Assembly: GCA_017460955.1 (NCBI GenBank)
Contig: JAFTZY010000022.1
Span: forward strand, 1-63,701
Length of the DNA: 63,701 nt
Origin: Oscillospiraceae bacterium
GTDB taxonomy: Bacteria; Bacillota; Clostridia; Oscillospirales; Ruminococcaceae
Direction: 5' to 3'
This document shows positions 163 to 33,692 of the stretch, one piece after another; position 1 is the first letter of the stretch, and the number at the start of each line of letters is the position of its first letter. Below the pieces are notes generated by a model. It searched no databases, was not told the DNA's origin, and was given only the letters and a program-made list of their open reading frames with translations. Position numbers and translations under genes: made by a program.

Positions 163-191
163 TTGACTTTACAAGATTTTTATGGTATAAT
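163..191 (+). promoter_or_regulatory. Sigma-A promoter of fibre locus A
   Basis: TTGACT (163-168), a 17-base spacer and TATAAT (186-191), with TGG directly before the -10 box. This is a near-consensus vegetative promoter. It would transcribe the SipW gene and, as no internal terminator is certain, possibly the whole of locus A to about 21 kb. Confidence 0.85.
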
Positions 192-361
192 AAGGCTAAA
201 CAGTCGGAGGGCGGACCGATCCTGCCCGGACGGCTTCACGGGAGCACGCAGCGCCGGACCCGCCCCGCGGGCATGGGGAATGGGGAAGACACGGCGAGGC
301 GGTACCGGCGGCAGTTGCCGGACTCCCGCGAACGAAAGCTGCAAGGGAGTGTTGCCGTAGC
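192..361 (+). promoter_or_regulatory. Structured 5' leader that may hide the SipW ribosome binding site
   Basis: A GC-rich leader of about 160 bases separates the promoter from the first gene. ACTCCC (322-327) can pair with GGGAGT (345-350), which contains the only plausible Shine-Dalgarno sequence (GGGAG, 345-349). Other hairpins are possible, such as CCGGC/GCCGG near 304-321. It matches no riboswitch class I know. Translational control by hiding the ribosome binding site is an inference. Confidence 0.4.
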
Positions 362-964
362 GTGAAACAAGGGACGGACAGCGGACAGCGAGCGGCGTAC
401 CGTATTTTTTCGACGGTGCGCACGATCTGCATTTACCTGCTGGCATTGCTGGTGATCGCAGCGGCGCTGCTGTTTGCAGCGGACAGAACCCCGGACAAAA
501 CCTTGTTCGGGTATCGGTACTTTACGGTACTGACAAATTCCATGGTGCCGGTATTTTCAAGCGGCGATGCGGTGCTGGTCCACGCGGAGGATGCGCAGAG
601 CATCCAGGTCGGGGACATCATCACCTACCATCCGTCGGCGGACACGGACAGCTATCTGACGCACCGGGTCACGCAGAAGCTTGAAAACTACGAAGGCACG
701 GGGGTCACCTGCTTCAGGACGCAGGGTGACGCCAACGACGCCGAGGATCCCTTCACGATCGGGGAGGAACAGGTCGTCGGAACGGTGGCGTTGCATATCC
801 CGAAGCTGGGGCTGGTGATACGGTTTGTGCAGCTGCGGTGGTATTATGTGGTACCGCTGCTGCTGTTGGTGTTCCTGTTTTTTCACCTTCTGGGGCGCTA
901 CTTCACGCCGGAGGAGGGAACCGGGGAGAGCGGTGACACGCCCCCGGAGGAACGGACTATATGA
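362..964 (+). CDS. sipW: SipW-type signal peptidase I (locus A)
   Basis: A 200-residue membrane protease of the SipW/archaeal-type signal peptidase family. Members cleave the special signal peptides of TasA-like matrix proteins. A hydrophobic segment lies at about residues 22-41. The catalytic serine is S60 in TNSMVP, and the general base is H101 in LTHRV, as expected for the Ser-His type rather than the bacterial Ser-Lys type. A GDANDAED stretch follows, with a second membrane segment near residues 160-178 and a charged tail. The usual GSMEP box reads NSMVP here. The start is the GTG at 362, since no better start follows GGGAG at 345; the 12-base spacing is long. It is the first gene of locus A, 13 bases before a SipW-cognate subunit, which is its likely substrate. 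Confidence 0.88.
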   Translation: MKQGTDSGQRAAYRIFSTVRTICIYLLALLVIAAALLFAADRTPDKTLFGYRYFTVLTNSMVPVFSSGDAVLVHAEDAQSIQVGDIITYHPSADTDSYLTHRVTQKLENYEGTGVTCFRTQGDANDAEDPFTIGEEQVVGTVALHIPKLGLVIRFVQLRWYYVVPLLLLVFLFFHLLGRYFTPEEGTGESGDTPPEERTI

Positions 965-977: not shown

Positions 978-2432
978 ATGAAAACTGCAAAGAAGAAGAC
1001 TGCAAGAGAAAAGAGAGTCCTGGTCGCAGCTTTGCTGGTCGCCGCTGTGACGATCGCCGGCAGCACCTTTGCCTGGTTCACATCACAGGACGAGGTAACG
1101 AACAGACTGTCTGCATCTGCTGACTACAATACGACCATCTACGAGGACTTCACCCCTGAAAAGGACTGGACTCCCGGCGAAGAGGTCAAGAAGGAAGTTG
1201 GCGCTATCAATACCGGCAGCGTGGACTCCTTTGTAAGAATGTGGCTGACCGGCGAGATGAAGCTGCTGGCAGCCGGCGAGGGCACAGCACTCTTTAGTGG
1301 TGGTACACTGAGTGCGCCTACAATCACGTTTACCGCTGATGATGACCTTGTGACGAATAATAGAACTGATTTGAAGAATGCAAGACTGAACGGCTCTGTT
1401 GATAATTCTGGTACAAAAACATATTATAGGGAAGTTAAGAATGTGGATGTAACAGACGATTTGGGAAGTGTTACGAATGAGCGTAAGGCACTTCAGAGCG
1501 GTGAGCTGGTTTATGCGACCGGTTCTTTCACCTATACTGCAAATCAGCCGACTGGTTCCACCGAGCAGACAGTATCAAACCATACGGATGGTACTGTTCT
1601 GAATGTGGACAGTGAGAGCTTCACGCCTACACAGGCAGGTCTCTACATCTTCCGCAGGAACTATGACCTGACGGAAACGGATGCAGTTGACAATGCCGAG
1701 TACAGCGGTTACTATTTTGACGGCACTCACTACTGGGCACTCCAGACGGAAACTGACGGTACTGTAGCAGGCGGTCAGGCCGAGACTGCCGCAAAGCCGT
1801 TTATCAGTGCTTTGAAGGATAAGAATACAGCAACTGAAATCACGGGCGCAATTAGCAATATTAAGCTGTTCACTGCTACGGAATCTACACTGCCCAATGA
1901 AAAACTGACATGGGCATATAAGACCGCAGCTTCTGACGATCCGTTTGCGACTGGCACGAACTATTTGGAAGTACATCCGACTGAGGGTGCAACAGGTCTC
2001 ATTATCAATGTAGAACTCGCTAATATTGGCACCGGCGCAGACCAGTGGACGAAGATGGGCGATGGAGCTGCAACGACCTTCTACTATAATGATGACGTAG
2101 AGGCCGGCGGTAATACCAAGCTGCTTGTGAAGGGTGTACAGCTTGATAAGGATGTTACTCAGAATACCTTCATTTCCTTCGACTTTGACCTCAATGTAAA
2201 CCTCGAGTCCATTCAGGTTACTGTTGACAACGAGGGCAAGGAGCTTGCTACAGCGGTTGCAAATTGGGCAGCTACTGATGGAAAGGGCATCACTGGTGCG
2301 AACGGTACAGCTACAAATTCCGACAATGAGATCTCTTTGATGACTTGGAATACTTATTCTGCACCGGCTGTAACGCCTGCAGCGACTGAAGCACCTGCAG
2401 CGACTGAAGCACCTGAAACGACTGAACCGTAA
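978..2432 (+). CDS. TasA/BsaA-like SipW-dependent matrix or pilin subunit
   Basis: A 484-residue secreted protein. A basic N-terminus is followed by a hydrophobic segment (about 14-33) and FTSQDEVTNR (34-43), the hallmark of SipW-cognate signal peptides. The mature part starts with 'TPGEEVKKEVGAINTGSVDS', which resembles the camelysin/TasA/BsaA beta-sandwich family, whose members assemble into biofilm fibres. The C-terminus is a run of short Thr/Pro/Ala/Glu repeats (ATEAPA type) from two near-identical 18-base units, probably a flexible spacer. There is no LPXTG signal. The ribosome binding site is GGAGGT before the ATG. The central part (roughly 1310-2340) looks less GC-rich than the ends. 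It follows SipW directly and is probably the main structural subunit of locus A. The exact subfamily is uncertain. Confidence 0.75.
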   Translation: MKTAKKKTAREKRVLVAALLVAAVTIAGSTFAWFTSQDEVTNRLSASADYNTTIYEDFTPEKDWTPGEEVKKEVGAINTGSVDSFVRMWLTGEMKLLAAGEGTALFSGGTLSAPTITFTADDDLVTNNRTDLKNARLNGSVDNSGTKTYYREVKNVDVTDDLGSVTNERKALQSGELVYATGSFTYTANQPTGSTEQTVSNHTDGTVLNVDSESFTPTQAGLYIFRRNYDLTETDAVDNAEYSGYYFDGTHYWALQTETDGTVAGGQAETAAKPFISALKDKNTATEITGAISNIKLFTATESTLPNEKLTWAYKTAASDDPFATGTNYLEVHPTEGATGLIINVELANIGTGADQWTKMGDGAATTFYYNDDVEAGGNTKLLVKGVQLDKDVTQNTFISFDFDLNVNLESIQVTVDNEGKELATAVANWAATDGKGITGANGTATNSDNEISLMTWNTYSAPAVTPAATEAPAATEAPETTEP

Positions 2433-2482: not shown

Positions 2483-3250
2483 ATGCGCATAAAAAATATG
2501 TTTACTGCGCTGGCAAGCTGCCTCCTGCTCCTTACCTGCAACAGCCTTTCGGCTTTTGCGGAGGTCGCTTTGCCCGACGGCGCGGTGAAGGGGCTTCCGG
2601 AGAAGCTGACCGCCATGGACAGCGAGGGCAACGTCGTCAGCTCCGATACCGGGGAGTATTTCTTCCGCGTCGAGGATATGAACTACGGCGTGACCTACAC
2701 CAAGGATGTCCAGCTCATGAATCTCCGGGACGACAAGTCCTACCACATCTACTTCTACGTCGAGCCCCTCTGGAAGGACGGCGAGATCGACCTCGAGGAG
2801 GGCTGCGACTGCACCTTCTGGCTCGACGGTCAGGAGGTCTACCGCGGCAAGGTCACCGGCGAGCCGTATGACGGCTACATGGACCTCACACAGGAGGTCC
2901 TCGACTGCGGCAGCTACGCCCCCGGCGACTCCCATACCCTGAAATGCTCCGTCATCTGGAATGACCTCGATGTCCTGGTGGGCGTTGATAACGGCCACCG
3001 CCTTGTCGATATCGACGGCGAGCACGTCCTCGTCGGCTCCGATGACGAAGGCTATGTTGAGGGCCAGATCGAGTTCAAGTGGATCTTCTACGCCGCCGTG
3101 GATGAGGACTACGAGCCCCCGAATACCGGACTCCTTGGCGTCAACGGCGCCTTCTGGATCGTCTGTATCGCCGTGCTCTTCGTGCTTATCGCCGGGATGC
3201 TCCTGCTCCTCTTCTTCAAGAAAAACAAGAAGAAGGCCGAAAAGCCATGA
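2483..3250 (+). CDS. Small sortase-anchored base protein with PPNTG signal
   Basis: A 255-residue secreted wall protein that I cannot assign to a named family. It has a classic signal peptide (about 1-25, ending in AFA), a compact extracellular domain and a sorting signal at the end: PPNTG at 212-216, a hydrophobic segment to about residue 244 and a lysine-rich tail. Four cysteines (a CDC pair, then DCG and KCS) lie in the ectodomain and could form disulfides. PPNTG differs from LPXTG in its first residue. The next gene, a class B sortase, overlaps by four bases (ATGA), so the pair is probably co-translated and the sortase is the likely anchoring enzyme. Because the adhesins lack a sorting signal, this may be the wall-linked foot of the fibre. 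The ribosome binding site is GAGGGGAGG. Confidence 0.75.
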   Translation: MRIKNMFTALASCLLLLTCNSLSAFAEVALPDGAVKGLPEKLTAMDSEGNVVSSDTGEYFFRVEDMNYGVTYTKDVQLMNLRDDKSYHIYFYVEPLWKDGEIDLEEGCDCTFWLDGQEVYRGKVTGEPYDGYMDLTQEVLDCGSYAPGDSHTLKCSVIWNDLDVLVGVDNGHRLVDIDGEHVLVGSDDEGYVEGQIEFKWIFYAAVDEDYEPPNTGLLGVNGAFWIVCIAVLFVLIAGMLLLLFFKKNKKKAEKP

Positions 3251-3969
3251 AACGCGCCCCCCTGATCGGCATTCTTGCCGTGCTCGTCGCTGCCGCCGGA
3301 CTGTGCGCCTATCGCTACTACGATACCGCCGTGCTGCCCGAAAAGCGTCTCGATGAGGCGGATGCGCAGCAGCTTGCACTCTTTGAGAGCATCCGTCCTG
3401 CGTCCGCCGATGCAAACGGTACGCCCCTCGAAGCGGCACAGGCCGTCAATGCGTCCGTGACCGCATGGCTCACCATCCCCGATACCCATATCGATTATCC
3501 CATCGCCCAGGCGGAGGACAACGATTTCTACCTCCACCACGGCTTTGACGGGGCCCTGAATCAGGAGCTCGGGTGTCCGTTCCTTGACTATCGCTGCGAG
3601 CGTGATTTTTCGGGCTTCAATTCCATTGTCTATGCCCATCATATGACAAGGCAGCGGATGTTTGCGGACATCGCCCTCTTCAAGGACGAGAGCTTCCTGC
3701 AAAGCCACCCCGAAGGGACCCTCACACTGCCGGACGGGACCCATACCGTGCGCTTCTATGCGTACCTGACCGTCCCGAGTACGGCCCCGGCATACCATAC
3801 AGTTTTTGTGACAGATGTACAGCGCAGAGAGTATCTTGACTACATTGCTTCTGCGGCAAGCGTCCTGCAGCCCACGGGACCCGATGAATCCTCCCGGCTG
3901 CTGCTCCTCTCGACCTGTACCTTTGAATATGAGGAGGCACGGGGCGTGCTGGTAGGCGTGATCGAATGA
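3247..3969 (+). CDS. srtB: Class B sortase
   Basis: A 240-residue membrane-tethered cysteine transpeptidase that joins sorting-signal proteins to peptidoglycan or to each other. One N-terminal membrane segment (about 6-22) is followed by the class B pattern: VTAWLTIPDT near residues 76-85, the catalytic histidine in YAHHM (H131 or H132), the catalytic cysteine C224 in LSTCTFEYEEARG and the arginine R232. Length and motif order fit SrtB rather than the pilin-polymerising class C, which carries a lid loop not seen here. It overlaps the PPNTG anchor gene by four bases. It is the only sortase in the window, so it may serve both fibre loci. Confidence 0.92.
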   Translation: MKRAPLIGILAVLVAAAGLCAYRYYDTAVLPEKRLDEADAQQLALFESIRPASADANGTPLEAAQAVNASVTAWLTIPDTHIDYPIAQAEDNDFYLHHGFDGALNQELGCPFLDYRCERDFSGFNSIVYAHHMTRQRMFADIALFKDESFLQSHPEGTLTLPDGTHTVRFYAYLTVPSTAPAYHTVFVTDVQRREYLDYIASAASVLQPTGPDESSRLLLLSTCTFEYEEARGVLVGVIE

Positions 3970-4127
3970 TGTGCGGCTGAGAATTTCCCCCATGTTTTCC
4001 GGCTGCGGATCGCTGTTCCGGGCCGGGCGCCCGTTGTTGTCATAGAGAATACTATCCTTGCACTTGATTTCAGCTATGGGGGAAATTGGGTGCTTTTTTG
4101 TTTCTTCTGCGAACGGAGGTGAGAAGC
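3970..4127 (+). promoter_or_regulatory. Structured spacer with 12-base inverted repeat and T-run
   Basis: AATTTCCCCCAT (3982-3993) is perfectly complementary to ATGGGGGAAATT (4076-4087), with 82 bases between. GGGTGC and a six-T run (4094-4099) follow directly. A smaller GC-rich hairpin (GGGCGCCC) sits inside the loop. The arrangement resembles a long-loop terminator or attenuator between the sortase and the adhesin half of the locus. No known riboswitch class was recognised. Confidence 0.45.
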
Positions 4128-5006
4128 GTGCGCATTTCTGTACTATGGAAAGACAAACAAAACAGAAGGAGATTGCTGACACTGCTTCTCTCCTTTTTGC
4201 TCTATGCCTTCATAATCTCCCGGATCTTCGCCTACTACAGCTCCGATGACGAGGTGACCAACCGCATCACCGGCAAAAGCATCGGACTGGAGCTCTACGA
4301 GCCGGAATGGGATGCCGTCGGCTCGAAGATGGCCCGTGCCTCCGAGCCCGGCATGGTCATCCCGAAGGACCCGTATGCCAAGAATACCGGCAATATGGAT
4401 GAGGTCGTGCGCCTGCATCTGACGATCCGTCTTGACGAGAGCATCGCAAGGCCGCCCTCGGGCAATGCACAGCATGAGGATATGCTCCAGAAGGCGACCG
4501 ATACCGAGCGCAAGATCGCGATCCTGCGTGCAATCCTCTATGAGAACGGCGGCTCCTTCGTGACTGTGCAAAGCGGTACACAGGCAGCCTCCGGGAATAC
4601 CATCCCTGTTACGGACGAGGACGGCGACAAGTTCATCGTCAGCTACCAGGGATCGGATTTCCTCATTGAGGATGCACAGCGTGACGGTGAGGCGTTTGAC
4701 TTCTATTTCTACTATATCGGGAACAATTACATCGGCGGGACCACCGGTACCAATGCGCAAGGGGTCCCCTATGACTACTCTTCGTTCACCCGCGAGGAGA
4801 CTGTGATGGAAACGCTCTCGCCCGAGGAGTCGACCTCCAAGCTGTTCCATAAGCTGGCGTATCCGATCTACAAGACCGATTATCTGACTGTGTTCGACCA
4901 GGGCTATACGATCGATGTGTATGCCGAGGGCATCCTGTGCAAGGACCTGGATGCGCGGAAGCTTGGTCATACGGTCGAAAATTTCAAGAAGCTTGCGGCT
5001 GAGTAA
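4128..5006 (+). CDS. SipW-cognate minor subunit, locus A
   Basis: A 292-residue secreted protein. After a basic start it has a hydrophobic segment (about 16-36) and SSDDEVTNR at 38-46, nearly the same processing motif as the first subunit. I start it at the GTG at 4128 because GGAGGTG lies six bases upstream; an in-frame ATG at 4086 lacks such a site and falls inside the inverted repeat. It is paralogous to the subunit of locus B: both have EPEWD soon after the signal, then EPGMxIPKDPY, then an Asn-rich aromatic region and a Tyr-Leu-containing end. The fold is probably camelysin-like. It lies 29 bases before the giant adhesin and may be its docking partner; that role is inferred. Confidence 0.7.
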   Translation: MRISVLWKDKQNRRRLLTLLLSFLLYAFIISRIFAYYSSDDEVTNRITGKSIGLELYEPEWDAVGSKMARASEPGMVIPKDPYAKNTGNMDEVVRLHLTIRLDESIARPPSGNAQHEDMLQKATDTERKIAILRAILYENGGSFVTVQSGTQAASGNTIPVTDEDGDKFIVSYQGSDFLIEDAQRDGEAFDFYFYYIGNNYIGGTTGTNAQGVPYDYSSFTREETVMETLSPEESTSKLFHKLAYPIYKTDYLTVFDQGYTIDVYAEGILCKDLDARKLGHTVENFKKLAAE

Positions 5007-5035: not shown

Positions 5036-8000
5036 ATGAAACATAATAAATCGATCATGAGCAGATGCCTGGCATGCTTCGGTGCATTCTTCCTGTCGGT
5101 GTACGCATTGGCGGATGTGGCATCCGCAGCCGCACAGGCTGCCGGAACGGACCGCGTTCCGGACGAAACGGCTGCTTACGAGACCTATGTGTCGGAGGAG
5201 GCAACGCAGGAAGCACCGACGGAGGAGGCAACACGGGAATACAGTGAGGAGGTCTCCGGGTATCTTGAGGAGGCGCTCACCTATGAGGAGCTGTCCGACG
5301 AGGCCAGACAGTTCCTGTCGGAAGAGAATATCCCTCTTGCCGGGTATGAGGAGTACCCGGCCGAATCGCTTGCACAGATGCAGATGGCAAAGCCCGAGGG
5401 GCAGACCGTTCTGGCAGGCGAAGGTGAGGATCCGGGCAGCGATACCGATCCGATCGTCTGGAATGAGATCGTGGATCTGACATACGTTCCGGAAGAGAAT
5501 GACAGTGATAACCCTGTCCGCAGCTTTCAGGCGACCTATTCGAGCGACATCATCGCCGGAAACGGGAAGGACAACGAGAACTTCCTCTACCGTGAGGATG
5601 ATTTCATCGTCAAATACACGGTCACACTCAACACAACGCAGACCCTGGACGCCGGCAGTGCCGTGATCGTGATCCCCCAGAAGCTCCTGGACCAGAGAGA
5701 CGGCCAGCCGATCGAGATCCGCGATGTGGACGGCATTGCGCTGCCCATGTTCTCGGAGGCTCCCACGAAGAACCCCGAAGGCTCCGTGCCCCTCTACAGC
5801 GGCGGCACGATCACCCCGAGTACCCGTACACAGTTCGGCTACTATATTGACAATGAGGGAAATTATGTCATTGTCAACTATGCTGCTGTCAAGCCGGGCT
5901 CCACATGGTTTGAAGTGGTGTACGACGAGGTCAATGTCTTTGATGCGAAGGACGGCCTGAAGAATGATACCGATTATACCCAGGCGGAGCCGTCCTGGAC
6001 GATCGATCCGAAGATCAGTGCGCAGTACAAGTTCGAGAAGGAGTGCTGGGTCTATGTGGGCAATATGCCGAACGAGACAACGGACAGCATCACCCTGAGC
6101 TCGAAGATCAAGAACAACTGGACGGAATACATGTCGCCGACGTGGGAGGATGAATACCGTGCGATGGTCGCCGATGGATACGATGTTTTCGGCGGATTGT
6201 CCGTGATGACCGACGGTGAGAACACCTATTATGGTGTGGATAATACGGATAAATTAAAAGAATATACGGATGACCCATCCAATGGCTGGGATAGCAGCCT
6301 TGGCTTTCTGTCCATGCTCCTCTACACAAAGGATGATTCCGGGGAGCCCGTTCTGACATACAGGCAGATCATCAAACTCGATGAGAACATGAAGTTTGTC
6401 ACAAGCTACCAGAAGCTGGTGAACAATGAATGGGTCGATGTCTCGACGGAGGATGAACCCAAGTCCGCGACCCGCAGAGCCACAAAGTGCCTCAAGGACG
6501 GCGAGACCTATTATCGTGTACTGACGACCGAGACGGCCAATTCCAACCAGGCCATCTCCGTCTATACCTATTACAACAGCGAAGGCGATCCCGTATACCA
6601 GAGAAAGGTACAGCCGGACGGCAGTGCGATCATCCGGAGGGCGGAGAGCGGCGCATGGGTGGACTGCAGCGAAAGTGAGCTGCCTACCGTTGACTGGGTC
6701 TATGAGACCTATGAGAAGAGCTCGGACCCGCTGACGGGCCTTATCAACACGAAGGTGGAGCTCGAGCCCCTTGTCAAGAAGGTCGGCGATGTGACTGATA
6801 CCGTCAAGGGTAATCTGAACTCCAAGGAGCAGATCCTCTCCTTCATCCCGCAGGCACAGCGCAGTGCGATCGAGCCGAAGCTCGATCTTGACAAGTATAT
6901 CTATGTCCTCTGGGATGTGGATGTCAGCGGCAAGGACGTCACGCAGCCCTTCCGGCTCTATCTGGATGAAATGACCAGCTACAGCACCGGTGCCGTTGAC
7001 GAAAACCAGCAGCCCCTGACATATACCTATTATGACGCCAGCACTGGCAATGTCCTGACCAATACGGAGGCAAACAAGAGCTTCATCCCCGGCGGTGAGA
7101 TCATCTACGTCGCAGGTGATGAGACCTCCACCGTTCCTGGTTATACCTCCATATACGAAGACAGTCAGGGTCTGTACTACATCGGCTCTGCGATCAACGA
7201 TGAGGTGGACGGCAGTGCCGTCAGCGCCGACGCCGATCTGAGCAAGGCAAGGACAACCGGCAGCTACTCCAAGAAGATCAAGGTCGTGACGGCCTATCCG
7301 AGGGATGCCGCCGGAGACACCCCCGGTGTCGCCATCGATACCATCGTAGCCGACAATGAGGGCGACTATGTCTATATCCCTTACGATGCGACCCTGTACG
7401 ATACAAATCTGTGGAGCGCGGTCAATGCACAGCTTGCTACACAAGCCGCGTCCGGCAAGGGCATTCTTGCCGACCGCAAGACCGTCAAGCAGGTCCTCGA
7501 GGGCATTCTAAACACCGCACTTGCCACGCAGGGCAATGACAATCCGCTGCTCCATGACTTTGTCCATGAGCTGGCACAGACCCTCCCGTCCACACCGGGC
7601 CTGTCGGCTGATTTTGCCGCCCTGACAACGGAGGAGCAGATCGAGAGCTACATCATCGACTGCTGGAAGGGGAACGTGATCGGCAGCAATGCGGCCCAGA
7701 TCAAAAAGGCATGCCAGGACTATCTCAATGACATCCTGGAGTCCAATCTGCAGCAGCTCAATGTCACCGTAGGCACCGATTCCGCCCCGCTGCAGAGCTA
7801 TCGGCAGAAGACCGTCTACCGCGAGGTCAGGAACGATGCCAATGCGATCGTTGTGCCGATCGACAACAAGGATGACAATGAGACGGAGTACGCACAGGCA
7901 GTTCACCAGCGTGAGGATAAGGACCCGAGCGTACCGAACGGGTTTTCGTACACCAAGGGTGCCAGCGGCAGCAAGAGCGGCTGGATCGACATGTACGATG

Positions 8001-16645: not shown

Positions 16646-16659
16646 AAGGAGTGCAGGCA

Positions 16660-21091: not shown

Positions 21092-21125
21092 AAAAAGCAC
21101 CATCCCTATTCGGGAAGGTGCTTTT
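21092..21125. terminator. Bidirectional intrinsic terminator between convergent genes
   Basis: AAAGCACC pairs with GGTGCTTT around a short CCC/GGG-extended loop, with A-run and T-run on the two sides. It ends locus A on the + strand and overlaps the last codons of the minus-strand SipW gene. Confidence 0.8.
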
Positions 21126-22790: not shown

Positions 22791-22799
22791 GAGCATTCT

Positions 22800-23551: not shown

Positions 23552-23580
23552 TTGAAATCGTCCACTCTTTGTGGTATAAT
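23552..23580 (+). promoter_or_regulatory. Sigma-A promoter of fibre locus B
   Basis: TTGAAA (23552-23557), 17 bases, TATAAT (23575-23580), with GTGG before the -10 box. It starts locus B about 80 bases before the SipW gene. It is divergent from the cyclase promoter, with about 170 bases between them. Confidence 0.8.
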
Positions 23581-23625: not shown

Positions 23626-23656
23626 CGTGTGCAGGCGGACGGCAGGGAGGCGCACG
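23626..23656 (+). promoter_or_regulatory. Hairpin enclosing the SipW-B ribosome binding site
   Basis: CGTGTGC (23626-23632) can pair with GCGCACG (23650-23656), one pair being G-U. The loop and 3' arm contain GGGAGG (23645-23650), the ribosome binding site for the GTG at 23662. It parallels the leader of locus A, where the site is also in a possible stem. Confidence 0.35.
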
Positions 23657-23661
23657 GTCGC

Positions 23662-24171: not shown

Positions 24172-24200
24172 ACATCCTTGCAGGGAGAGGAGGGTGTCTT

Positions 24201-25016: not shown

Positions 25017-28000
25017 ATGCTCAGGAAGATACGCGATCGGTTCATCAGCTGCATCACGGCTGCGGTCATGACAGCGGCACATATCAGCACGGTCATGCCG
25101 CTGCGTGCGGCGGATGCGCAGCAGGATCTGACCTACCGGAGCATTGAGCTGTACCCGAACGGCAAGCATGCAGAGCAGGTCGTGACCCTCGACGGGATGA
25201 TGCCGGAGGGGGCAAGAGCCAGGGCGGTCGATGTTTCGGAGGACTACGAAGGCGAGGCGGCCTATGATATCACCATAAAGGACGGATGGGAGGAATACCA
25301 GCCGGGAACGGAGCACCCGATCCTGGTGGAGATCACCGACCCTGTCATTACAGAGAACATCACGCTCTGGCATATCCACGATTTCGGAGCGCGGGAGCAG
25401 ATCTTTGACTATACCGTCGAGGAGGGCAGGGTCAGCTTCTATGCCACCGGGTTCTCGGTGTATGAGATCGTGAACGAGGAGGTTGACTTTAACGTGACCT
25501 GTGATGTTGTCCCGGTGACGGGCAGCACCTCGTCCTTTGAGACCTATACTGTGCAGGCAGCCGGCGAAGCGGAGATGTTTTCCTATCCGGTGGTGGAGAA
25601 AACGTATCCTGAAATGTATGGGACGGCGACGCAGATCACGGGCATAGATGATTTGAAGCTGAAAATTGCTGATGGTGAAGGCTTTTATATTAGAAGCAAC
25701 GCACATGGCTCTTATGCAAAAAATAGCCAATGCGTTATATCAGGCGCGAGAACAGGTATTTCCGTTACGACAAAATACACCGATGCAAATGTCAGCAAGA
25801 ATATGTATGATGCATATAATGCAGGCGCCCAAAAATATTATTTTGAGGAAGTGGATGCTTCACAGAATCAGTACTATATTTATACCTATGATGATGAGAA
25901 TGAAATACAGTATGTGGGATGGAATGCAGTTGGATCAAATAACAATTTATATTTGACGAATGATAAAAATGCTACCACCTATCCTGCACATGTATGGAAG
26001 GTCAATATAGAAAATGGGCTGTTTTATTTTAAGGATAGCAATGCAAATCGATTTTGGACATCTAAGTATGACAACGATAATACAAGAGGTTTTGCCAATT
26101 ATACATCCAACAGCACCGGCGAAAAATTTTCGCTCTGGAGCTACACCCCGCCTGACCTCTCAACAGACCCCTACGAGCTCGACGGAAACATCTACGGTCT
26201 TGTGAATTTCCAGTCTGCAACAAAGGGAAGCGCTCTTCTTGCGGGAAATTATAACAATTCAGGAAATACGCTGGGAAACAATCAGTACTTGACACCCGAT
26301 AGTGGGACCCCGACCGTGTATACCTCCTCCTACGGTATCACCGGCTGGAAATTTGAATGGGTCGGCGGGACCAGGTATAGGATCAGTGCAATCGCGGATG
26401 ACGGTGCATCATGGAAATACCTGAAGCTGGACTCCACCGGTCTATCGCTGACTGCGGATGCTTCGGAAGCGACTGAGCTGACTGTAGTTCCGGGCGCCAA
26501 CAACAGGATCAGGCTGACAGCGGATGGACGCGCTGTGAATAGAAACGGTGATACCAGCTTTAATGCGGCAACAAGCAACCCAAATGATAAACAATACTTC
26601 GACCTTGTGGACGTTTCAGGCGTGACGAATGACGGTCTGTCCCTGAACGGCTCCACCTTCGGCTTGGTCAGCAAACAGAGCGCCACGATCGGAAACGCAA
26701 TGATGGCCTCAGCGTATTCAGCTACGCATCTTGATAATCAGGTCGTAACTGCGGGCGATGCATGCTATGTTTTCCCCGGAGGGATCTCCACCTGGACGTT
26801 CCACAATATTGATACGAATCGCTATACGATCTCCAATGGCTCTCAGTATCTGAAGCTTGATAGAGGTGGACTGTATGTTTCTGACACTCCGTATATTTTG
26901 ACGGTAGTAGCGGGCGAAGGCGATAATGCAGGAAAAATCAGGATCCTCAATACATCGGATAAGTGCCTGATTCGGAAAAACGGCAATACATCTTTTTATT
27001 CTAATACTGATTTTGCAAGTGTCTCTGCTGACAAATGGTTCGACCTTGTCACTGTCCCCGAGGCGCCCGCATCCGATCCGCTCGGCCTTGACGGCAACAC
27101 CTATGGGATCATGAACCGGAACAATGCATTAGGTTACGCGATGATGGCAGAAGCGGAAACGGCAGCAGCTCTTCGCAATCAAAATGCAACATTCGATAGC
27201 GACGCCTTGCAGTACAAATCGTTCGGTGCGATCAGCGGATGGACATTTCACTGGCAGGGGTATGCCAACTATACACTTTCTGCAACCGCAGCTGACGGAA
27301 CAGAAAGGTGGATAAAGTTTGATTCTACAGGCATCTCATTAGTCGATGCCAGTGAAGCAACACCGATCACAGTTGAGGTCAATACCGGTAATTTCCCAGG
27401 CAGGATCAGGATCATTCCGTATTTGGACAATAATATCAGCTCACTCCAAAGAGCTAATGCGAATTTTGGAAGGAATATAAATTCAAATTACGCAACAGGA
27501 GGACAGTATTGGCACGACCTCGTGACCTTTACGCTCGATGACCCCTACAGCCTTGACGGCAAGAGCTACGGGCTGATCTACAGCACCGGCGGCTCCATCG
27601 GCTATGCCCTCGAAGCGGAAGCGTCCTCCTATTTTGCAGAGCTCGACAGCATCGTGACCCGTGATGCAAGCGCGATCAAGACCTATTATGTCAGCCAGGA
27701 AAGCGACATCACGCTTTGGTCCTTTGAAAAGACGCAGGAGGACAGATACCGCCTGAAAGCGCCCTCCGGTCAGTACCTTACGTTCGCCGGCGATGCTCTC
27801 GCGCTTGTGGATACTGCGGACAGCGCCGCCGATTTCCGGATCCTGCCGCAGTCCGACGGCAGCATCTATGTTGCCTGTGCATCAGGCTACCTTGCCTTTG
27901 ACGGGACCGGATTCTCCGTGGCGGGCGCACCGTCCAAACTGCATTTCGTCAAAAAGACGGACGTGACCGGCTCGGACTCCATCACCTACACGGCGGACAG

Positions 28001-31000
28001 GATCAGTGTTTCCGACGGTGAGAAGGCGAAGGACGGCGAGCAGGTGATCGTCTATACCCGTATATGGGATGATGCGAACAAGCGGTATGAATTCTTTGCG
28101 ATCGACCATGACGGCTCGCTCAAGGAGGTCTATGCCTACGGCGATAAGATCATGTGGCTGGGCGATGCCGTTCAGACGCTCTGGTGGAAGCTCACGGTCT
28201 ATGAGAATGCGGACGGCTCCGAGACCGGCTATTATGAGCTGCAAAATACCTACTCCGGCAAATACCTTGCGCCCCAGATCTCCGGCAGCCAGACGCTGTC
28301 CGATACGAAGATCGGCATCCAGCTCCCCGGACGCTCCTACGAGAAGGTCGCCGCTACCGATGAGACGACCGGTGAGACAACGTACACCTACAATTACGGA
28401 GAATACTACTCGGCAGTCATTGCATGGGATAAGCGGTATTACGACTATGCAAGCCTCGATGCCGTCGTGACCGACCAGACGACAAAGACGGGCGAGATCC
28501 GGGCAGCAAGCTATGCCGCAGCCGATACGTTCTATTTCGCCGTGCCCGATGACGTGTTTGCCAACGAACAGGAGGCCACCCTTCATCCGGTCAAGACGAT
28601 CGACAATACCGAATACGGCATTTCGATGAAAATGATCGATTTTGGTGATGACAGTCTGTCAACCGCGGCAGGCAGTGATGTCACCAAGTACTATTTCGGC
28701 GGCGACTCCGGCAACACCACCGGGCTGTTGTCCACACGCCTTGATGCAGACGGCCATCCGATCGTAGTAAAGACAAGTGATGCGGGAAAAGATTTCGGTG
28801 ATGCGTTTAATGATGCAGTCGGGGTAAATCATCTGTTCATCAATAGCATCCACGAATCCAGCGGCTATTTTGAGTTTGACAGTACGCAGAACTATGCCAC
28901 CCTGCTGCAGGCGGATGGGACGGTCGGCAATGAGTTTACGGTGTACAGAGAACTTGGTACACATGACTCCTCGACAAAGAACTCCCTGCGTCACGGGCAG
29001 TTCTTCCCCTACAATACGATCGAGCCCGGTGTATTTGATGACGATCCCGCTAAGGATAATGACGGCCTCAATCTATACACATTCGATGCCACAACGGCGA
29101 ATGATACAACCGTTGCGAAGGGCCAGCTGTCGGACGATGACCCCCGTAAATATGAAAAGCTGTATAAGATCCAGGATCCCGACTACTATTTCGGGATGGA
29201 GATGGAAGCGGAGTTTGTCCAGACCCCGAGCGGACTGGACGCCTGGGGACATGACATCATCTTTGAGTTCACCGGAGACGATGACTTCTGGCTCTATGTT
29301 GACGGCGAGCTTGAGATCGACCTGGGCGGTATCCACTCCGCCGAAGCGTGCAATGTCAATTTCCGTACCGGCAAGGTCGTTGTGAACGGCCAGGCGACAA
29401 CGCTCAAGCAGATATTTACCGAGCATTACAAAACCTACCCCTACACGGAAGAGGAAGCCAAAGCCAAGATCCTGAGAGTGGACTGCGATGCTGACCGGAA
29501 TATCACACTGGCTGAGTTTGAGGCGTGGTACCATACAGAATACGAAGATGCCAGAACTGCCTATGTGACCGACAACCCTGACGCAGAGGAAGCGGAGATC
29601 ACGGCCTATCTGACGAAGAACCTTGCAAACAGAAAGGTCACATATGACGAATTCAAGGAACACTATCCCGATCAAGTGGCCTATGACACCCTGCTTGCAG
29701 GGTATCTCGCACAAAATCACGATGATGAGGCGACCGAATTCTATATCAGCAGTATCTTCGAGCCGAACGGGGAGACCGGCGATAATGCCGGCTATGTATT
29801 CAAGGACTATACCACGCACCATATGAAGATCTATTATATGGAGCGCGGTGCAGGGGCCTCCAATCTGCATATGCGGTTCAACCTCTCCGCTGTCACACCG
29901 GGAAATGTCTTGTTTGCAAAGCAGCTCTCCGGTGTCAGCGCCAAGGATGACATGGATTACAGCATGGTGCAGTATCCGTTTCAGATCTTCTGGAAATTTT
30001 CCGATGATGCAAATGAACCGTGGCGTTCTCTTACCAACAAGGATGATGAAAATCATCTGACCGTAAAATATCAGAATTCCACACAGACGGTCCGGTTTGC
30101 CGAGAAATACACCCCGGCTGTGGAGGCGGCCAAGCCCGTCGGAGAGCGGCACATCTATGACAATGTGTTCTTCCTGGTGCCGGGACGAAGCATTGAGATC
30201 AGCTTCCCCGATAACGCCATGTACTATCAGATCATCGAATGCGCTGTCAATACGGACATCTATGACACGGTATCGGCAATGGGCGGTGACGGGAACGAAA
30301 TACAGCTGATAGAAAATGTAGTGAGCGGCAATATCAAGGACCTGATCGCAGAAGCAACACAGGTCAAGGAGCAGCCCACGATCGCGTTTGATAATCAGGT
30401 CAGACCGGGCGGTGTGCGGTCTCTGAACATTACCAAGATCCTCTACAACGAAGAGGATGACGGTACCAAGCAGTCCGGGCATCGTCTGAGTCATGCGCAG
30501 GATCCGACGACCTTCAGCTACAGACTCTATCTTTCCAACGGCGTCAGTGCCGAGATGCAGCTTGCGAATCTGCAGCGGTACTATGTGCTCGATGAGGATA
30601 ACTATCTGTGTACATGGGATTCCGATACGCAGGAATTTGTCCGCTACACACCGCAGACGCAGGAGGCCGCAGCGCTCAGCGAGGAGGAGAAGCACAAGGT
30701 CACGTTCCACACCTCCCAATACGGCGCGATCTCCAATATCCCCGCAGGATATACGGTCAAGGTGCCCGGCCTGGTCGCAGGTACGAGATTCATGATCGAG
30801 GAGCGGGACAACGAGATCCCCGTGGGCTACGGATTGATGGATTATGAGTGCGGAACGGAGCTGATCGATGGTGTCACAGCGCAGGCGTCCTATCTTGCCG
30901 ATGACCCTGACAATCCAAATACGGGAACGATCCTCACCACGAGCGATGCACATGCGATCATCAACAACCAGCGCGGCTTTGGCATCCGGGCCGACAAGGT

Positions 31001-33032
31001 CTGGTCCGACACCGATTTTGCAAGCGGACACGGGACGATCTATACCGCGGTGTATGTTGGCGACAGCCTGACACCGCTTCCCGGTTCCGTAAAAAGCATT
31101 GAAACGGATGAGACCGCCGTGCAGTATTTCTACCATTCGCTGGAGCCCGGCAGAACGCTTTCCGACTATCGGATCTGTGAAGTCCTGCTGACCGATCCGG
31201 TCAAAAACAGCGACGGGAGTATCAGCTATTCTTCTATTACGAAGCTTGAAAACGAGTCCCTGCTCGTCAGTCATCCCGTGACGGATCACAACGGCACGGA
31301 GACGGCCGATGACTACATGGTCAGCTATATGCTCGGGCCCCCTGAAAAGTCCATCCCCTCGCTGGATTATGAGAACGCCCGCACCGATACGATCAAGAAT
31401 ACCCGGAAGGGCGGCCTTGCGATCAACCTGCATGTGTGGAACACGACAAGCGGGCCGGATACGCCGCTTGCGGACGGGACCTTCCGTCTGACGCGCACAC
31501 GCGGCGGTGCAGAATCCGCAGTCGGGACGTATATCTCCGATGCGGACGGCTCCGTGACGGTCCTGTACCATTTTGAAGCCGGGGATGTGTATAAGCTCGA
31601 GGAAACGATCTCTCCGAGGGGCTACCTTGGCCTGACCGAGCCGATCTATTTTACGATCACCAAAACGGGCGACGTGTACAGTCTTGTCTCGTGGAAGAAT
31701 GAGAACGATTCTGACATGCCAAAGCTCGATCCGGAAACGGGCGAGCCGATCCTGAGGACCGATCCGAATACCGGGGCCCCGATCCCAAAGATCGATCCGG
31801 CAACGAATGAGCCGGTCCTGAAACTGGATCCGGCAACGGGCGAGCCGATCCCGGAGACAGACCCGGTCACGGGGGAACCGATCACCGATCCTGAGGGGAA
31901 TATAGTCTACCAGATCGAATATGAGACCGTGCCCGAGAGCGATCTGGAGCCGACGGACGGCAAGTACTGGGCGGAATACAATCTTACCTCGGGGATCATG
32001 GTCGCCACGATCGATGTGTACAACAAGCCGTTTACCCTGCAGGTCGTCAAGGCGGACAGTGAGAACACCGACCAGGGTCTGGGCGGTGCGCATTTTGAGC
32101 TGTACAAGAGCGTCATGAGCAGTATCGCAGGCCAGATCAAGGACTTCCGTCCCCTGACCGGATATGAGGATCTCATCACGGATGCAAACGGCGTCATTCC
32201 CGGGATCGACCAGACCCTGCTGCCCCGGACGTACTATCTGACGGAGACCCAGGCGCCTCCCGGCTATGAGGGACTCAGCGAGGATATCGTCTTTGAGATC
32301 AGGGATAACGGCGAGATCTCCTGCGATGAAAGATTCCTTGCCCGCAGGGAAGAGACCGTTGGCGGCACGCTCCATGTGACATTTACGATCAGCATCCCCA
32401 ATGTCCGCTCGGCACGGGCCTATTACTTTGACATCGAAAAGCTCATCCTCATTGACCGCTATGTCCATGACGAAGATACGGAGCAGAAGTTCCTGTTCAA
32501 GGTGGAGCGCTTTGCAGATGAGGACGCCTACAACGCAGAAACGGTTGCCGGCACGTTTTATGTGACCATGAACTGCGACCGGGATCTGACGGCGACGGGC
32601 TACCCCTATGCGCTCAGCGCAGACACCGGGCACAACTATAACGAATCACGCGGCGAGGTGACGATCACCTATGACACGGACCGGCAGTACACCTTCCCCG
32701 CCGGGATCTGGCAGGGCAGACAGACCGTCATGGTCAGCGAAGGCGGGATCTACCGTGTTTCGGAGGTCTCTGACTGGTCATCCACGGACTACGATCCCTG
32801 GGAGGGTGCCAATATCTATACCGGCTGCGGCAGTGCCATCCGGCAGGGCCAGACCGACGGCTATGTGGTGTTCAATGTGGAAAGTGTGAAGGCTGACAGG
32901 TTTGAGAATGAGACAGCACAGATCGACGGAGCCACGGTCGGACGACCCACAGCAAGCTTTACCAACACCGAGACCGAATACGCATACCTCAGCTCCCAGG
33001 CTTACGCTGAGAATGCGATCACCAGGAAATAA
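25017..33032 (+). CDS. Giant multidomain surface adhesin, 2671 residues (locus B)
   Basis: A secreted protein with a signal peptide (about 1-31). After an N-terminal beta domain and an AT-rich insert (about 205-372) come four related modules of about 140-150 residues, starting near 382, 542, 690 and 843. Each opens with LDGxxYGL or a variant, and the first three end with a DLV strand. A beta domain at about 995-1180 leads to a PA14-like 'fibro-slime' domain (about 1195-1625) with FTGDDDFWLYVDG and ERGAGASNLHMRFNL. An EF-hand-like loop lies inside it at 1489-1500. Cna-B-like modules follow near 1631, 1803, 1990 and 2134, then five 11-residue Pro-rich repeats (31722-31886) and a SpaA-type module (about 2338-2445). 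The last 200 residues are the YYFDIEKL module shared with the locus A adhesin. No LPXTG signal is present. Confidence 0.82.
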   Translation: MLRKIRDRFISCITAAVMTAAHISTVMPLRAADAQQDLTYRSIELYPNGKHAEQVVTLDGMMPEGARARAVDVSEDYEGEAAYDITIKDGWEEYQPGTEHPILVEITDPVITENITLWHIHDFGAREQIFDYTVEEGRVSFYATGFSVYEIVNEEVDFNVTCDVVPVTGSTSSFETYTVQAAGEAEMFSYPVVEKTYPEMYGTATQITGIDDLKLKIADGEGFYIRSNAHGSYAKNSQCVISGARTGISVTTKYTDANVSKNMYDAYNAGAQKYYFEEVDASQNQYYIYTYDDENEIQYVGWNAVGSNNNLYLTNDKNATTYPAHVWKVNIENGLFYFKDSNANRFWTSKYDNDNTRGFANYTSNSTGEKFSLWSYTPPDLSTDPYELDGNIYGLVNFQSATKGSALLAGNYNNSGNTLGNNQYLTPDSGTPTVYTSSYGITGWKFEWVGGTRYRISAIADDGASWKYLKLDSTGLSLTADASEATELTVVPGANNRIRLTADGRAVNRNGDTSFNAATSNPNDKQYFDLVDVSGVTNDGLSLNGSTFGLVSKQSATIGNAMMASAYSATHLDNQVVTAGDACYVFPGGISTWTFHNIDTNRYTISNGSQYLKLDRGGLYVSDTPYILTVVAGEGDNAGKIRILNTSDKCLIRKNGNTSFYSNTDFASVSADKWFDLVTVPEAPASDPLGLDGNTYGIMNRNNALGYAMMAEAETAAALRNQNATFDSDALQYKSFGAISGWTFHWQGYANYTLSATAADGTERWIKFDSTGISLVDASEATPITVEVNTGNFPGRIRIIPYLDNNISSLQRANANFGRNINSNYATGGQYWHDLVTFTLDDPYSLDGKSYGLIYSTGGSIGYALEAEASSYFAELDSIVTRDASAIKTYYVSQESDITLWSFEKTQEDRYRLKAPSGQYLTFAGDALALVDTADSAADFRILPQSDGSIYVACASGYLAFDGTGFSVAGAPSKLHFVKKTDVTGSDSITYTADRISVSDGEKAKDGEQVIVYTRIWDDANKRYEFFAIDHDGSLKEVYAYGDKIMWLGDAVQTLWWKLTVYENADGSETGYYELQNTYSGKYLAPQISGSQTLSDTKIGIQLPGRSYEKVAATDETTGETTYTYNYGEYYSAVIAWDKRYYDYASLDAVVTDQTTKTGEIRAASYAAADTFYFAVPDDVFANEQEATLHPVKTIDNTEYGISMKMIDFGDDSLSTAAGSDVTKYYFGGDSGNTTGLLSTRLDADGHPIVVKTSDAGKDFGDAFNDAVGVNHLFINSIHESSGYFEFDSTQNYATLLQADGTVGNEFTVYRELGTHDSSTKNSLRHGQFFPYNTIEPGVFDDDPAKDNDGLNLYTFDATTANDTTVAKGQLSDDDPRKYEKLYKIQDPDYYFGMEMEAEFVQTPSGLDAWGHDIIFEFTGDDDFWLYVDGELEIDLGGIHSAEACNVNFRTGKVVVNGQATTLKQIFTEHYKTYPYTEEEAKAKILRVDCDADRNITLAEFEAWYHTEYEDARTAYVTDNPDAEEAEITAYLTKNLANRKVTYDEFKEHYPDQVAYDTLLAGYLAQNHDDEATEFYISSIFEPNGETGDNAGYVFKDYTTHHMKIYYMERGAGASNLHMRFNLSAVTPGNVLFAKQLSGVSAKDDMDYSMVQYPFQIFWKFSDDANEPWRSLTNKDDENHLTVKYQNSTQTVRFAEKYTPAVEAAKPVGERHIYDNVFFLVPGRSIEISFPDNAMYYQIIECAVNTDIYDTVSAMGGDGNEIQLIENVVSGNIKDLIAEATQVKEQPTIAFDNQVRPGGVRSLNITKILYNEEDDGTKQSGHRLSHAQDPTTFSYRLYLSNGVSAEMQLANLQRYYVLDEDNYLCTWDSDTQEFVRYTPQTQEAAALSEEEKHKVTFHTSQYGAISNIPAGYTVKVPGLVAGTRFMIEERDNEIPVGYGLMDYECGTELIDGVTAQASYLADDPDNPNTGTILTTSDAHAIINNQRGFGIRADKVWSDTDFASGHGTIYTAVYVGDSLTPLPGSVKSIETDETAVQYFYHSLEPGRTLSDYRICEVLLTDPVKNSDGSISYSSITKLENESLLVSHPVTDHNGTETADDYMVSYMLGPPEKSIPSLDYENARTDTIKNTRKGGLAINLHVWNTTSGPDTPLADGTFRLTRTRGGAESAVGTYISDADGSVTVLYHFEAGDVYKLEETISPRGYLGLTEPIYFTITKTGDVYSLVSWKNENDSDMPKLDPETGEPILRTDPNTGAPIPKIDPATNEPVLKLDPATGEPIPETDPVTGEPITDPEGNIVYQIEYETVPESDLEPTDGKYWAEYNLTSGIMVATIDVYNKPFTLQVVKADSENTDQGLGGAHFELYKSVMSSIAGQIKDFRPLTGYEDLITDANGVIPGIDQTLLPRTYYLTETQAPPGYEGLSEDIVFEIRDNGEISCDERFLARREETVGGTLHVTFTISIPNVRSARAYYFDIEKLILIDRYVHDEDTEQKFLFKVERFADEDAYNAETVAGTFYVTMNCDRDLTATGYPYALSADTGHNYNESRGEVTITYDTDRQYTFPAGIWQGRQTVMVSEGGIYRVSEVSDWSSTDYDPWEGANIYTGCGSAIRQGQTDGYVVFNVESVKADRFENETAQIDGATVGRPTASFTNTETEYAYLSSQAYAENAITRK
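31722..31886 (+). repeat. Five tandem 33-base units (11-residue DPxTGEPI repeats)
   Basis: The locus B adhesin has five consecutive 11-residue units of the form KLDPxTGEPIx. The repeats lie between a Cna-B-like and a SpaA-like module and probably form a stiff, extended linker. In-frame tandem units can vary in number between strains. Confidence 0.85.
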
Positions 33033-33062
33033 GCCGGAATCCCGCAAAAGGAGGGGTGATGA

Positions 33063-33692
33063 ATGAAACGCAGACAAAAACGTACCATGCTCATCGGCGG
33101 TATCGCAGCAGCGCTGTTCATCACCGCTCTTGCCGTTCTGGCGGCATTGTATCTCAGCCGGCAGCGTGTGAATGTGTTCCGGCCGGCCACAGTCGATATC
33201 GAGGTCAAGGAAGGCACAAAGAAGGACGAGCAGCTGGAACGGACCATGGAGCTGGATGAGGAAACCGGGCGCGTGGAGAAGCCCGTCGAGATCTCCGACA
33301 CCCGTTCCCGTGCGCAGGAGGCGCTGCGTGTCTGCCTGGTACCGATGTGGTACGACAGCGAGGAGCGGGTCTGCGGCAGTCTGTTCCGTATCGGCACACC
33401 TGCCATGAACAGCGAGGAGACCGCACTGGTCTATACGGACGGCGACATAACGATCACACTCGGGCTGCACGAGGGCTGGAAGGAGAGCGGCTGGGAATAC
33501 CGCAGTGACGGCTGCTTCTATTATACCGGTGCGCTCCTGTCCGGGAAGCTCACGCCGCAGCTTCTGGACAGCGTGGTGCTGAACGATGACGCATACGCGC
33601 TGACGGAGGACTATACCCTGCGTATCGATGTCCTTGCCGATGCGATCCAGACAAGCGGGGATGCCCCGGCGACCCGGGGATGGACGGAATGA
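33063..33692 (+). CDS. Small membrane-tethered fibre-locus protein, locus B
   Basis: A 209-residue paralog of the 20404-21087 gene. It has a Lys/Arg-rich start, a hydrophobic segment (about 9-29), then NVFRPATVDIEV, similar to the post-signal start of TasA-like proteins. Conserved patches are CLVPMWYD followed by VCGS, and YALTEDYTLRIDV near the C-terminus. It lies 30 bases after the giant adhesin with AAAGGAGGGG before its ATG, and it closes locus B. A fixed adhesin-plus-small-protein pair at the end of both loci suggests a shared assembly step. The family is not recognised. Confidence 0.65.
   Translation: MKRRQKRTMLIGGIAAALFITALAVLAALYLSRQRVNVFRPATVDIEVKEGTKKDEQLERTMELDEETGRVEKPVEISDTRSRAQEALRVCLVPMWYDSEERVCGSLFRIGTPAMNSEETALVYTDGDITITLGLHEGWKESGWEYRSDGCFYYTGALLSGKLTPQLLDSVVLNDDAYALTEDYTLRIDVLADAIQTSGDAPATRGWTE

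What the first reader, a model, noticed from the sequence alone, without database searches (positions are those of the whole stretch)
163..33692. Two-locus SipW/TasA-like fibre system with giant adhesins sharing one sortase
Seen: locus A has SipW, two SipW-cognate subunits, a PPNTG anchor, SrtB, two giant adhesins and a small single-segment protein. Locus B repeats only SipW, one subunit, one adhesin and the small protein. Known: SipW processes TasA/BsaA-type matrix subunits, and SrtB anchors proteins. Inference: locus B is a satellite that borrows the sortase and base from locus A, and the mix of SipW fibres with Cna-B adhesins over 1200 residues long forms one surface organelle. I know of no described system with this exact set.
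Basis: partly seen in the sequence, partly recalled or inferred. Interest (0 to 1): 0.85.

Follow-up and report, generated by a model that had tools for sequence, protein, structure and literature searches.

The report
Fibre operon mounting giant unanchored adhesins
A bacterium related to Ruminococcus carries a recurring set of genes that probably builds a TasA-like surface fibre held to the cell wall by one sortase-anchored protein, and fits it with giant sticky proteins that lack the usual wall anchor and, in two of three cases, end in a shared conserved tail instead.

Summary
Its picture of locus B as a satellite is reversed by relatives: in 10 of 10 related loci with a readable upstream side, the B-type cassette (SipW2-BsaA2-giant adhesin-small protein) runs straight on from core genes of the SipW1-BsaA1-PPNTG-SrtB set. 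The window has one such core followed by cassettes A and B, with an unlisted reverse-strand SipW3 and GGDEF gene between. The small proteins are weak BsaA relatives. The giants have no sorting signal. Adh2, Adh3 and 20 of 20 related adhesins instead carry a conserved C-terminal tail, consensus EYAYLSSQAYAENxI (in L114 behind an in-frame stop). A small protein is encoded in 27 of 27 genomes with such adhesins (only as fragments in two), directly downstream in 18 of 20 scanned loci; the PPNTG protein in 23 of 27. Best reading: one fibre system, one sortase-anchored base, exchangeable adhesin cassettes, the tail docking adhesin to fibre through the small protein. New variant of the SipW/BsaA kind.

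The parts
163..191 (+). promoter-like site of locus A (TTGACT-17-TATAAT, TG before -10)
   Evidence: 11 of 12 matches
362..964 (+). SipW1, SipW/ER-type signal peptidase (core)
   Evidence: TIGR02228 81.9 bits over cut-off; Ser-Met and His-Arg motifs
978..2432 (+). BsaA1, SipW-dependent BsaA-type fibre subunit (core)
   Evidence: TIGR04090 81.7 bits, cut-off 60; TIGR04088 19.7 bits, cut-off 19
2483..3250 (+). PPNTG protein, presumptive sortase-anchored base (core)
   Evidence: PPNTG, hydropathy 3.27; 58-77% identical in the 7 relatives aligned
3247..3969 (+). class B-type sortase (core)
   Evidence: PF04203 28.8 bits over cut-off; TIGR03064 139.8, under cut-off 153.75; H, C, R invariant
4086..5006 (+). 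BsaA2_A, second BsaA-related subunit, cassette A
5036..16645 (+). Adh1, giant surface protein with LRR_5 and DUF7601, no anchor, different C-terminus
16651..20385 (+). Adh2, adhesin with DUF7601 domains and the conserved C-terminal domain and tail, no anchor
20293..20382 (+). Adh2 C-terminal tail, in the place of a sorting signal
20404..21087 (+). Small_A, weakly BsaA-related protein with N-terminal hydrophobic segment
21106..21585 (-).
21582..23294 (-). membrane GGDEF protein (true start probably further in)
   Evidence: PF00990 84.3 bits; homologue about 0.6 kb upstream of SipW1 in L146
23354..23382 (-). promoter-like site of the GGDEF-SipW3 unit
   Evidence: 11 of 12
23552..23580 (+). promoter-like site of locus B
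   Evidence: 11 of 12
23629..24171 (+). SipW2, cassette B signal peptidase
   Evidence: TIGR02228 76.6 bits over cut-off
24168..25004 (+). BsaA2_B, subunit of cassette B, homologue of BsaA2_A
   Evidence: itself no BsaA-family hit, but 10 of 11 aligned members have one
25017..33032 (+). Adh3, giant adhesin: SpaA domains, fibro-slime and PA14-like hits below cut-off, conserved C-terminal domain and tail, no anchor
32949..33029 (+). Adh3 C-terminal tail, in the place of a sorting signal
33063..33692 (+). Small_B, weakly BsaA-related protein with N-terminal hydrophobic segment

Best explanation
This is one SipW/BsaA(TasA)-type fibre system with a single core (SipW1, subunit BsaA1, sortase-anchored PPNTG base, SrtB) and two adhesin cassettes in a row. 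A cassette is a second subunit (BsaA2), one or two giant adhesins and a small BsaA-like protein, usually with its own SipW. Subunits pass through Sec and are trimmed by the SipWs, then polymerise without sortase. SrtB fixes only the PPNTG base to the wall. The adhesins leave by ordinary signal peptides; Adh2 and Adh3 are held because their last Cna-B-like domain ends in a tail that docks on the small protein, which links them to the fibre. Swapping cassettes changes what the fibre binds. Shown: gene content, order in relatives, missing sorting signals, conserved tail, co-occurrence. Inferred: processing, polymerisation, docking, one organelle, any role of the neighbouring GGDEF gene.
For: Gene order: 10 of 10 upstream-resolved B cassettes are contiguous with core genes (L098, L100, L103, L104, L109-L113; L206; L103's PPNTG and SrtB); SrtB sits directly before SipW2 in 8 of the 10. 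One A-type cassette follows a full core (L139/L102). A second lineage keeps the parts in another order (Small-SipW1-BsaA1-PPNTG-SipW2-BsaA2-SrtB-adhesin; L207, L209; L208 the same without SrtB in the stretch). Co-occurrence: adhesin end in 11 of 396, PPNTG in 19 of 396, both in 9 (Fisher p 8e-12, not corrected for kinship). Small protein directly downstream in 18 of 20 scan loci, somewhere in the genome in 20 of 20. Tail in 22 of 22 adhesins printed; its window ranks 3rd of 190 for conservation over 219 columns. Isopeptide-type triad K 20/20, E 20/20, N 19/20, one tail E and one tail N 20/20 in the 20 rows of A11. No sorting motif or C-terminal membrane helix in Adh1-3, against PPNTG and the same genome's LPESG tip adhesin; C-terminal hydropathy -0.3 to 1.1 in the 20 scan adhesins. 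Small and BsaA2 members hit TIGR04090 at E up to 0.01 in 16 of 20 and 10 of 11. In C. perfringens, BsaA polymerises without its neighbouring srtB (PMC7395162, passages read).
Against: No structure, complex or expression data. The BsaA relationship of BsaA2 and Small is weak: Small_A, Small_B and BsaA2_A score 20 to 25.8 bits against a cut-off of 60, BsaA2_B has no hit, and neither profile finds TasA in the PDB by sequence. A donor-strand-mimic test of the tail was not significant. In 4 of 27 adhesin genomes no PPNTG gene was found (G035, G108, G152, G165; draft genomes). In 2 of 20 scan loci no small protein follows the adhesin (L115, L116). Ten of 19 PPNTG genomes lack the adhesin end, so the core can do without it. 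Adh1 lacks the tail, so its attachment is unexplained. Separate promoter-like sites would allow separate use of A and B. Gene linkage alone does not prove one organelle.
Confidence: 0.6

Rival explanations
1. Two independent fibre systems lie side by side. Each cassette with its SipW and subunit makes its own matrix fibre; SrtB and the PPNTG protein serve only BsaA1 or something else.
For: Separate promoter-like sites; three SipW genes with different active-site surroundings; an A-type cassette off the core contig in G019 and PPNTG-SrtB pairs apart from the cassette in G148; srtB is dispensable for BsaA polymers in C. perfringens.
Against: Contiguity of cassette and core genes in 10 of 10 resolved B loci and in a rearranged second lineage; 23 of 27 genomes with the adhesin end carry the PPNTG gene.
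Confidence: 0.2
2. The giants are not mounted on fibres but are secreted matrix proteins, or held by non-covalent wall binding; the tail is a folding or secretion element and the small protein a chaperone that does not stay in the structure.
For: No sorting signal or C-terminal membrane helix on the giants; small proteins have an N-terminal hydrophobic segment that might stay in the membrane; TapA acts as an assembly chaperone (PMC10151520, abstract read) and CapP is chaperone-like (PMC13082335, abstract read).
Against: Conservation of the tail in adhesins whose bodies differ; repeated linkage to fibre genes.
Confidence: 0.2
3. One reading: locus B is a satellite and its adhesin is fixed by the sortase borrowed from locus A.
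For: Only one PPNTG gene found in the genome.
Against: Adhesins lack a sorting signal; the B cassette is the usual continuation of the core in relatives.
Confidence: 0.04

Closest known systems
Clostridium perfringens sipW-bsaABCRSD with neighbouring srtB (PMC7395162; abstract and passages read)
   Same: SipW plus BsaA subunit, a putative sortase gene (srtB) beside the operon, putative secreted accessory proteins BsaB, BsaC, BsaD
   Different: The paper's main text has no occurrence of 'adhesin' or 'Cna', and the operon as given has one sipW; srtB lies 5' of sipW; regulation by BsaRS, here a GGDEF gene is linked. Whether BsaB/BsaC relate to the PPNTG or small protein was not tested.
Bacillus subtilis tapA-sipW-tasA (PMC9674648 passages, PMC10151520 abstract)
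   Same: SipW-processed beta-sandwich subunits; accessory protein that helps assembly
   Different: Three-gene operon without sortase, PPNTG protein or giant adhesin; sequence similarity to TasA was not detected here by PDB search
Bacillus cereus TasA-CalY-CapP (PMC13082335, abstract read)
   Same: sortase-independent heteropolymer of two subunits plus accessory protein
   Different: no giant adhesin or sortase-anchored base named in the abstract
Sortase-polymerised pili with large tip adhesins (a pilus-like locus lies on contig C32 of the same genome)
   Same: SpaA/DUF7601 (Cna-B-like) domains, giant adhesin of over 3000 residues
   Different: Proteins there carry LPXTG-like signals; the giants here do not, and the only sortase found in the window is class B-like

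Membership tests
SipW/BsaA(TasA) fibre system | SipW-type signal peptidase gene | tested here: met
   three copies in the window over the TIGR02228 cut-off
SipW/BsaA(TasA) fibre system | BsaA-family subunit over curated cut-off with SipW-type signal peptide | tested here: met
   BsaA1 only: TIGR04090 81.7 bits (60), TIGR04088 19.7 (19)
SipW/BsaA(TasA) fibre system | second subunits and small proteins belong to the same superfamily | tested here: inconclusive
   TIGR04090 hits at E up to 0.01 in 10 of 11 and 16 of 20 members, best E 3.2e-9 and 1.3e-8; window members at most 25.8 bits against 60, BsaA2_B none; no PDB hit to TasA
SipW/BsaA(TasA) fibre system | subunits polymerise by donor-strand exchange | not testable with these tools
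   structure prediction switched off
Sortase-polymerised (LPXTG/class C) pilus | adhesins and shaft subunits carry C-terminal sorting signals | tested here: not met
   none in the last 80 residues of Adh1-3; the subunit sequences end without LPXTG or a hydrophobic tail, by reading
Sortase-polymerised (LPXTG/class C) pilus | pilin-type class C sortase at the locus | tested here: not met
   the only sortase found in the window scores best as class B
Class B sortase with its substrate | sortase with conserved His, Cys, Arg | tested here: met
   invariant in 7 of 7 aligned; TIGR03064 score under cut-off
Class B sortase with its substrate | adjacent secreted protein with sorting motif, membrane helix and positive tail | tested here: met
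   PPNTG here; PPNTG, PPKTG, PPRTG, TPSTG, TPFTG in the 7 relatives aligned
Fibrillar adhesin with isopeptide domains | Lys-Glu-Asn triad in the Cna-B-like domain | tested here: met
   C-terminal domain K 20/20, E 20/20, N 19/20, by alignment only; SpaA/DUF7601 hits over cut-off elsewhere in Adh1-3

The most novel reading that the evidence does not exclude
The tail EYAYLSSQAYAENxI is a new sortase-independent attachment signal: by inserting as a donor strand into, or bonding covalently to, a BsaA-like adaptor, it mounts giant adhesins as tips on TasA-type fibres, so Gram-positive bacteria would have a tip-adhesin fibre working like chaperone-usher pili, with swappable adhesin cassettes on one sortase-anchored base.
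Probability: 0.3. Interest if true: 0.82.

Novelty: new variant of a known kind. Interest (0 to 1): 0.55.

Why it matters
TasA/BsaA fibres are known as biofilm matrix; whether they carry dedicated adhesins did not complete in the papers found here. A recurring eight-part gene set in Ruminococcus and relatives, many from rumen, ties such fibres to a sortase-anchored base and to giant adhesins that lack an anchor. It offers a concrete, testable attachment signal and may help explain how these bacteria hold on to plant fibre, host or each other.

Tried and rejected
Locus B as satellite: rejected on gene order in relatives. Sortase anchoring of the giants: rejected, no signal. A sortase-polymerised pilus: rejected for this locus; a pilus-like locus with LPXTG-like signals sits on contig C32. 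Tail as an amphipathic helix: the hydrophobic moment is low at 100 degrees (0.12) and higher at 170-180 (0.23-0.24) and at 80 degrees (0.30), so undecided. Tail as a mimic of the subunits' donor strand: noticed after the fact and tested with a profile of BsaA1/BsaA2 segments over 30 whole or partial surface proteins (L114 left out). Among the 22 tail-bearing ones the best window in the last 36 residues ranked 1 to 133, median 10, of 253 to 2750 windows; chance would give roughly a few tens; since these tails are homologous this is suggestive at most, and profiles with Small segments did worse. Of the eight others, three large proteins from more distant sets ranked 4, 13 and 5 (G060, G010, G083) and five giants without the tail 72 to 320. 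PDB searches with the Small and BsaA2 profiles gave one hit at E 1 and none; the PPNTG profile gave 7 hits, best levansucrases (E 0.0024) over about 54 residues, taken as chance. Profile comparison of Small against BsaA2 was weak: probability 17%, E 0.0015. Rfam at gathering threshold: 0 hits. Literature: ten searches listed no paper that by title or abstract describes this set in Ruminococcus; this covers only the held open-access library and the listed rows.

Full report
What is in the window. The window is the whole contig C72 of a 2.48 Mb draft genome in 84 contigs, 90.8% complete. Of the 20 loci of the named scan, 15 are titled Ruminococcus (5 of them R. flavefaciens) and 5 Oscillospiraceae, Clostridiales or Lachnospiraceae; many titles name rumen. 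Three things were added. Between the loci, on the reverse strand, lie a third SipW (21106-21585) and a membrane GGDEF protein (21582-23294). The two small proteins are weak but consistent relatives of the BsaA family: 16 of 20 members hit TIGR04090 at E up to 0.01, Small_B at 25.8 and Small_A at 20 bits against a cut-off of 60. The three giants have ordinary-looking N-terminal signal sequences but no sorting motif and no C-terminal membrane helix (maximum 19-residue hydropathy 0.46, 0.26 and 0.07 in the last 80 residues), whereas the PPNTG protein reaches 3.27 and the LPESG tip adhesin of the pilus-like locus on contig C32 of the same genome 1.49.

Transcription units. Locus A, locus B and the GGDEF-SipW3 unit each start with a promoter-like site matching 11 of 12 positions and a TG before the -10 box (163-191, 23552-23580, and 23382-23354 reverse). 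These are consensus matches only; the two scans found 8 and 7 sites where shuffles gave means of 3.1 and 2.8.

Relatives. An alignment of five adhesin C-termini was scanned against the genome-contig collection (84,980 species): 77 stretches matched a pattern and 20 encode a relative. Annotation by profiles built here shows the order SipW1-BsaA1-PPNTG-SrtB-SipW2-BsaA2-Adh3-Small, or the readable part of it, in L098, L104, L109, L110, L111, L112 and L113; L100 lacks SrtB between PPNTG and SipW2, and L103 has PPNTG-SrtB-SipW1-BsaA1-SipW2 (L144). With L206, 10 of 10 B cassettes whose upstream side can be read are continuous with core genes, and in 8 of 10 SrtB directly precedes SipW2. L101, L105, L106, L107 and L184 begin inside the adhesin at a contig border and were left out of that count. 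A-type cassettes (Adh1-Adh2-Small) are less tied: L102/L139 follows a full core, SipW2 and BsaA2; L186 follows BsaA1-SipW2-BsaA2, with the genome's two PPNTG-SrtB pairs on other contigs; in G019 the cassette is on contig C23 and the core on C12; L099 runs off its contig, with SipW and BsaA-like genes on the other strand; in L114 an Adh2-type gene carries an in-frame stop. So in the window a core is followed by an A cassette without SipW2 (116 bases between SrtB and BsaA2_A), then by the inverted SipW3-GGDEF unit, then by a complete B cassette.

A second lineage. In G251, G383 and G287 (L207, L209, L208) the order is Small-SipW1-BsaA1-PPNTG-SipW2-BsaA2-(SrtB)-adhesin; SrtB is not in the stretch of L208. 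These adhesins gave no phmmer hit to Adh1-3 at E 1e-4, yet their last domain and tail (..IYAYRSGQAYSYNTF.. in L207) are recognised by the C-terminal profile (66 to 69 bits). Keeping the same parts in a new order argues that they work together.

Co-occurrence. In 396 genomes drawn from the family, the adhesin end is found in 11, the PPNTG protein in 19, both in 9; Fisher p 8e-12, without correction for kinship. Ten genomes have PPNTG without the adhesin end (the weakest hits are G026 and G144). The earlier 148-genome sample gave 5, 6 and 4. Among the 20 scan genomes 17 have PPNTG. A small protein is present in all 27: directly downstream of the adhesin in 18 of the 20 scan loci, elsewhere in the genome for L115 and L116, in the cluster in G000, G251, G287, G383 and G400, and only as pieces in G027 and G108. 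The 148-genome search with the first Small profile gave hits in 14 of 148, most of them weak and in genomes without this adhesin, so Small alone is not specific. Copy number: 18 of 20 scan genomes hold one adhesin of this type; G149 has two, and G167 has one plus a remnant; the window's genome has two, so the double cassette is unusual.

The tail. In the 22 adhesins the protein ends 1 to 10 residues after the consensus FTN.E.EYAYLSSQAYAEN.I (individual tails differ at several positions; in L114 the tail lies behind an in-frame stop). Its 30 columns have mean entropy 1.16 bits against 1.96 for the other 189 columns; as a window it ranks 3rd of 190. In the 20-row alignment A11 (two window rows and 18 relatives; L114 and L115 not included) the Lys and Glu of an isopeptide-type triad are invariant, the Asn is present in 19, and in the tail one Glu and one Asn are invariant. 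The triad assignment is by comparison with the Lys-Glu-Asn listed for DUF7601 in PMC12617251 (passages read). The tail thus starts right after the last Cna-B-like strand, where LPXTG follows in sortase-anchored pilins (that last point recalled).

Mechanism. Shown: parts, order, missing signals, conserved tail, linkage. Inferred from TasA/BsaA: SipW processing and sortase-free polymerisation (PMC9674648 passages, PMC7395162 passages, PMC10151520 abstract). Inferred here: SrtB anchors only the PPNTG base; the tail docks adhesin on the small protein. Which end of the fibre carries the adhesin is unknown. A profile test of donor-strand mimicry was not significant. Domain hits on the giants (LRR_5, DUF7601, SpaA over cut-off; fibro-slime 44.8 bits against 45 and PA14 below cut-off) fit binding proteins, but ligands are unknown.

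Regulation. A GGDEF protein related to the window's (158 bits) lies about 0.6 kb upstream of SipW1 in R. flavefaciens YAD2003 (L146), so the link recurs at least once; a role for cyclic di-GMP is a guess.

Novelty. SipW-BsaA fibres and a srtB gene next to them are known from C. perfringens, where srtB was not needed for the polymer. Giant unanchored adhesins with a common tail, a small BsaA-like partner and a PPNTG base were not described in the listings, abstracts and passages seen from the ten searches named under Tried and rejected. It is a new variant of a known kind, recurring in several genera of the family (adhesin end in 7 of 126 genera) rather than peculiar to this genome.

Noticed in passing
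21106-23294 (-): SipW3 followed by a membrane GGDEF protein, divergent from locus B; a GGDEF homologue lies about 0.6 kb upstream of SipW1 in L146.
   Followed up: partly
60734-62482 (-): Second diguanylate cyclase-type protein with an N-terminal FIST sensor.
   Followed up: no
37941-41099 (+): Dockerin plus Cthe_2159 carbohydrate-binding protein, a cellulosome-type part near the fibre loci.
   Followed up: no
L014 5059-18944 (contig C32): Pilus-like locus in the same genome: LPQTG protein, LPSTG protein, 3203-residue LPESG adhesin, two sortases on that contig.
   Followed up: partly
5036-16645, C-terminus: Adh1-type proteins have another C-terminus, proline-rich and similar in the window and L097 (LPKPP..TQ), also without sorting signal.
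   Followed up: no
L058, L092, L093: More distant family members have similar sets with other tails: a large protein without LPXTG near SipW and BsaA-like subunits and, in L058 and L093, an IPQTG or PPQTG protein.
   Followed up: partly
L114 4509-4650: Adhesin gene broken by an in-frame stop before its tail while the small protein gene is open.
   Followed up: no
23629-24171 and B-cassette SipW2 genes: SipW2 has Ser-Met-Gly-Ser at the active site where SipW3 has Ser-Met-Glu-Pro; some relatives show SMGELLP, possibly a substrate preference.
   Followed up: no
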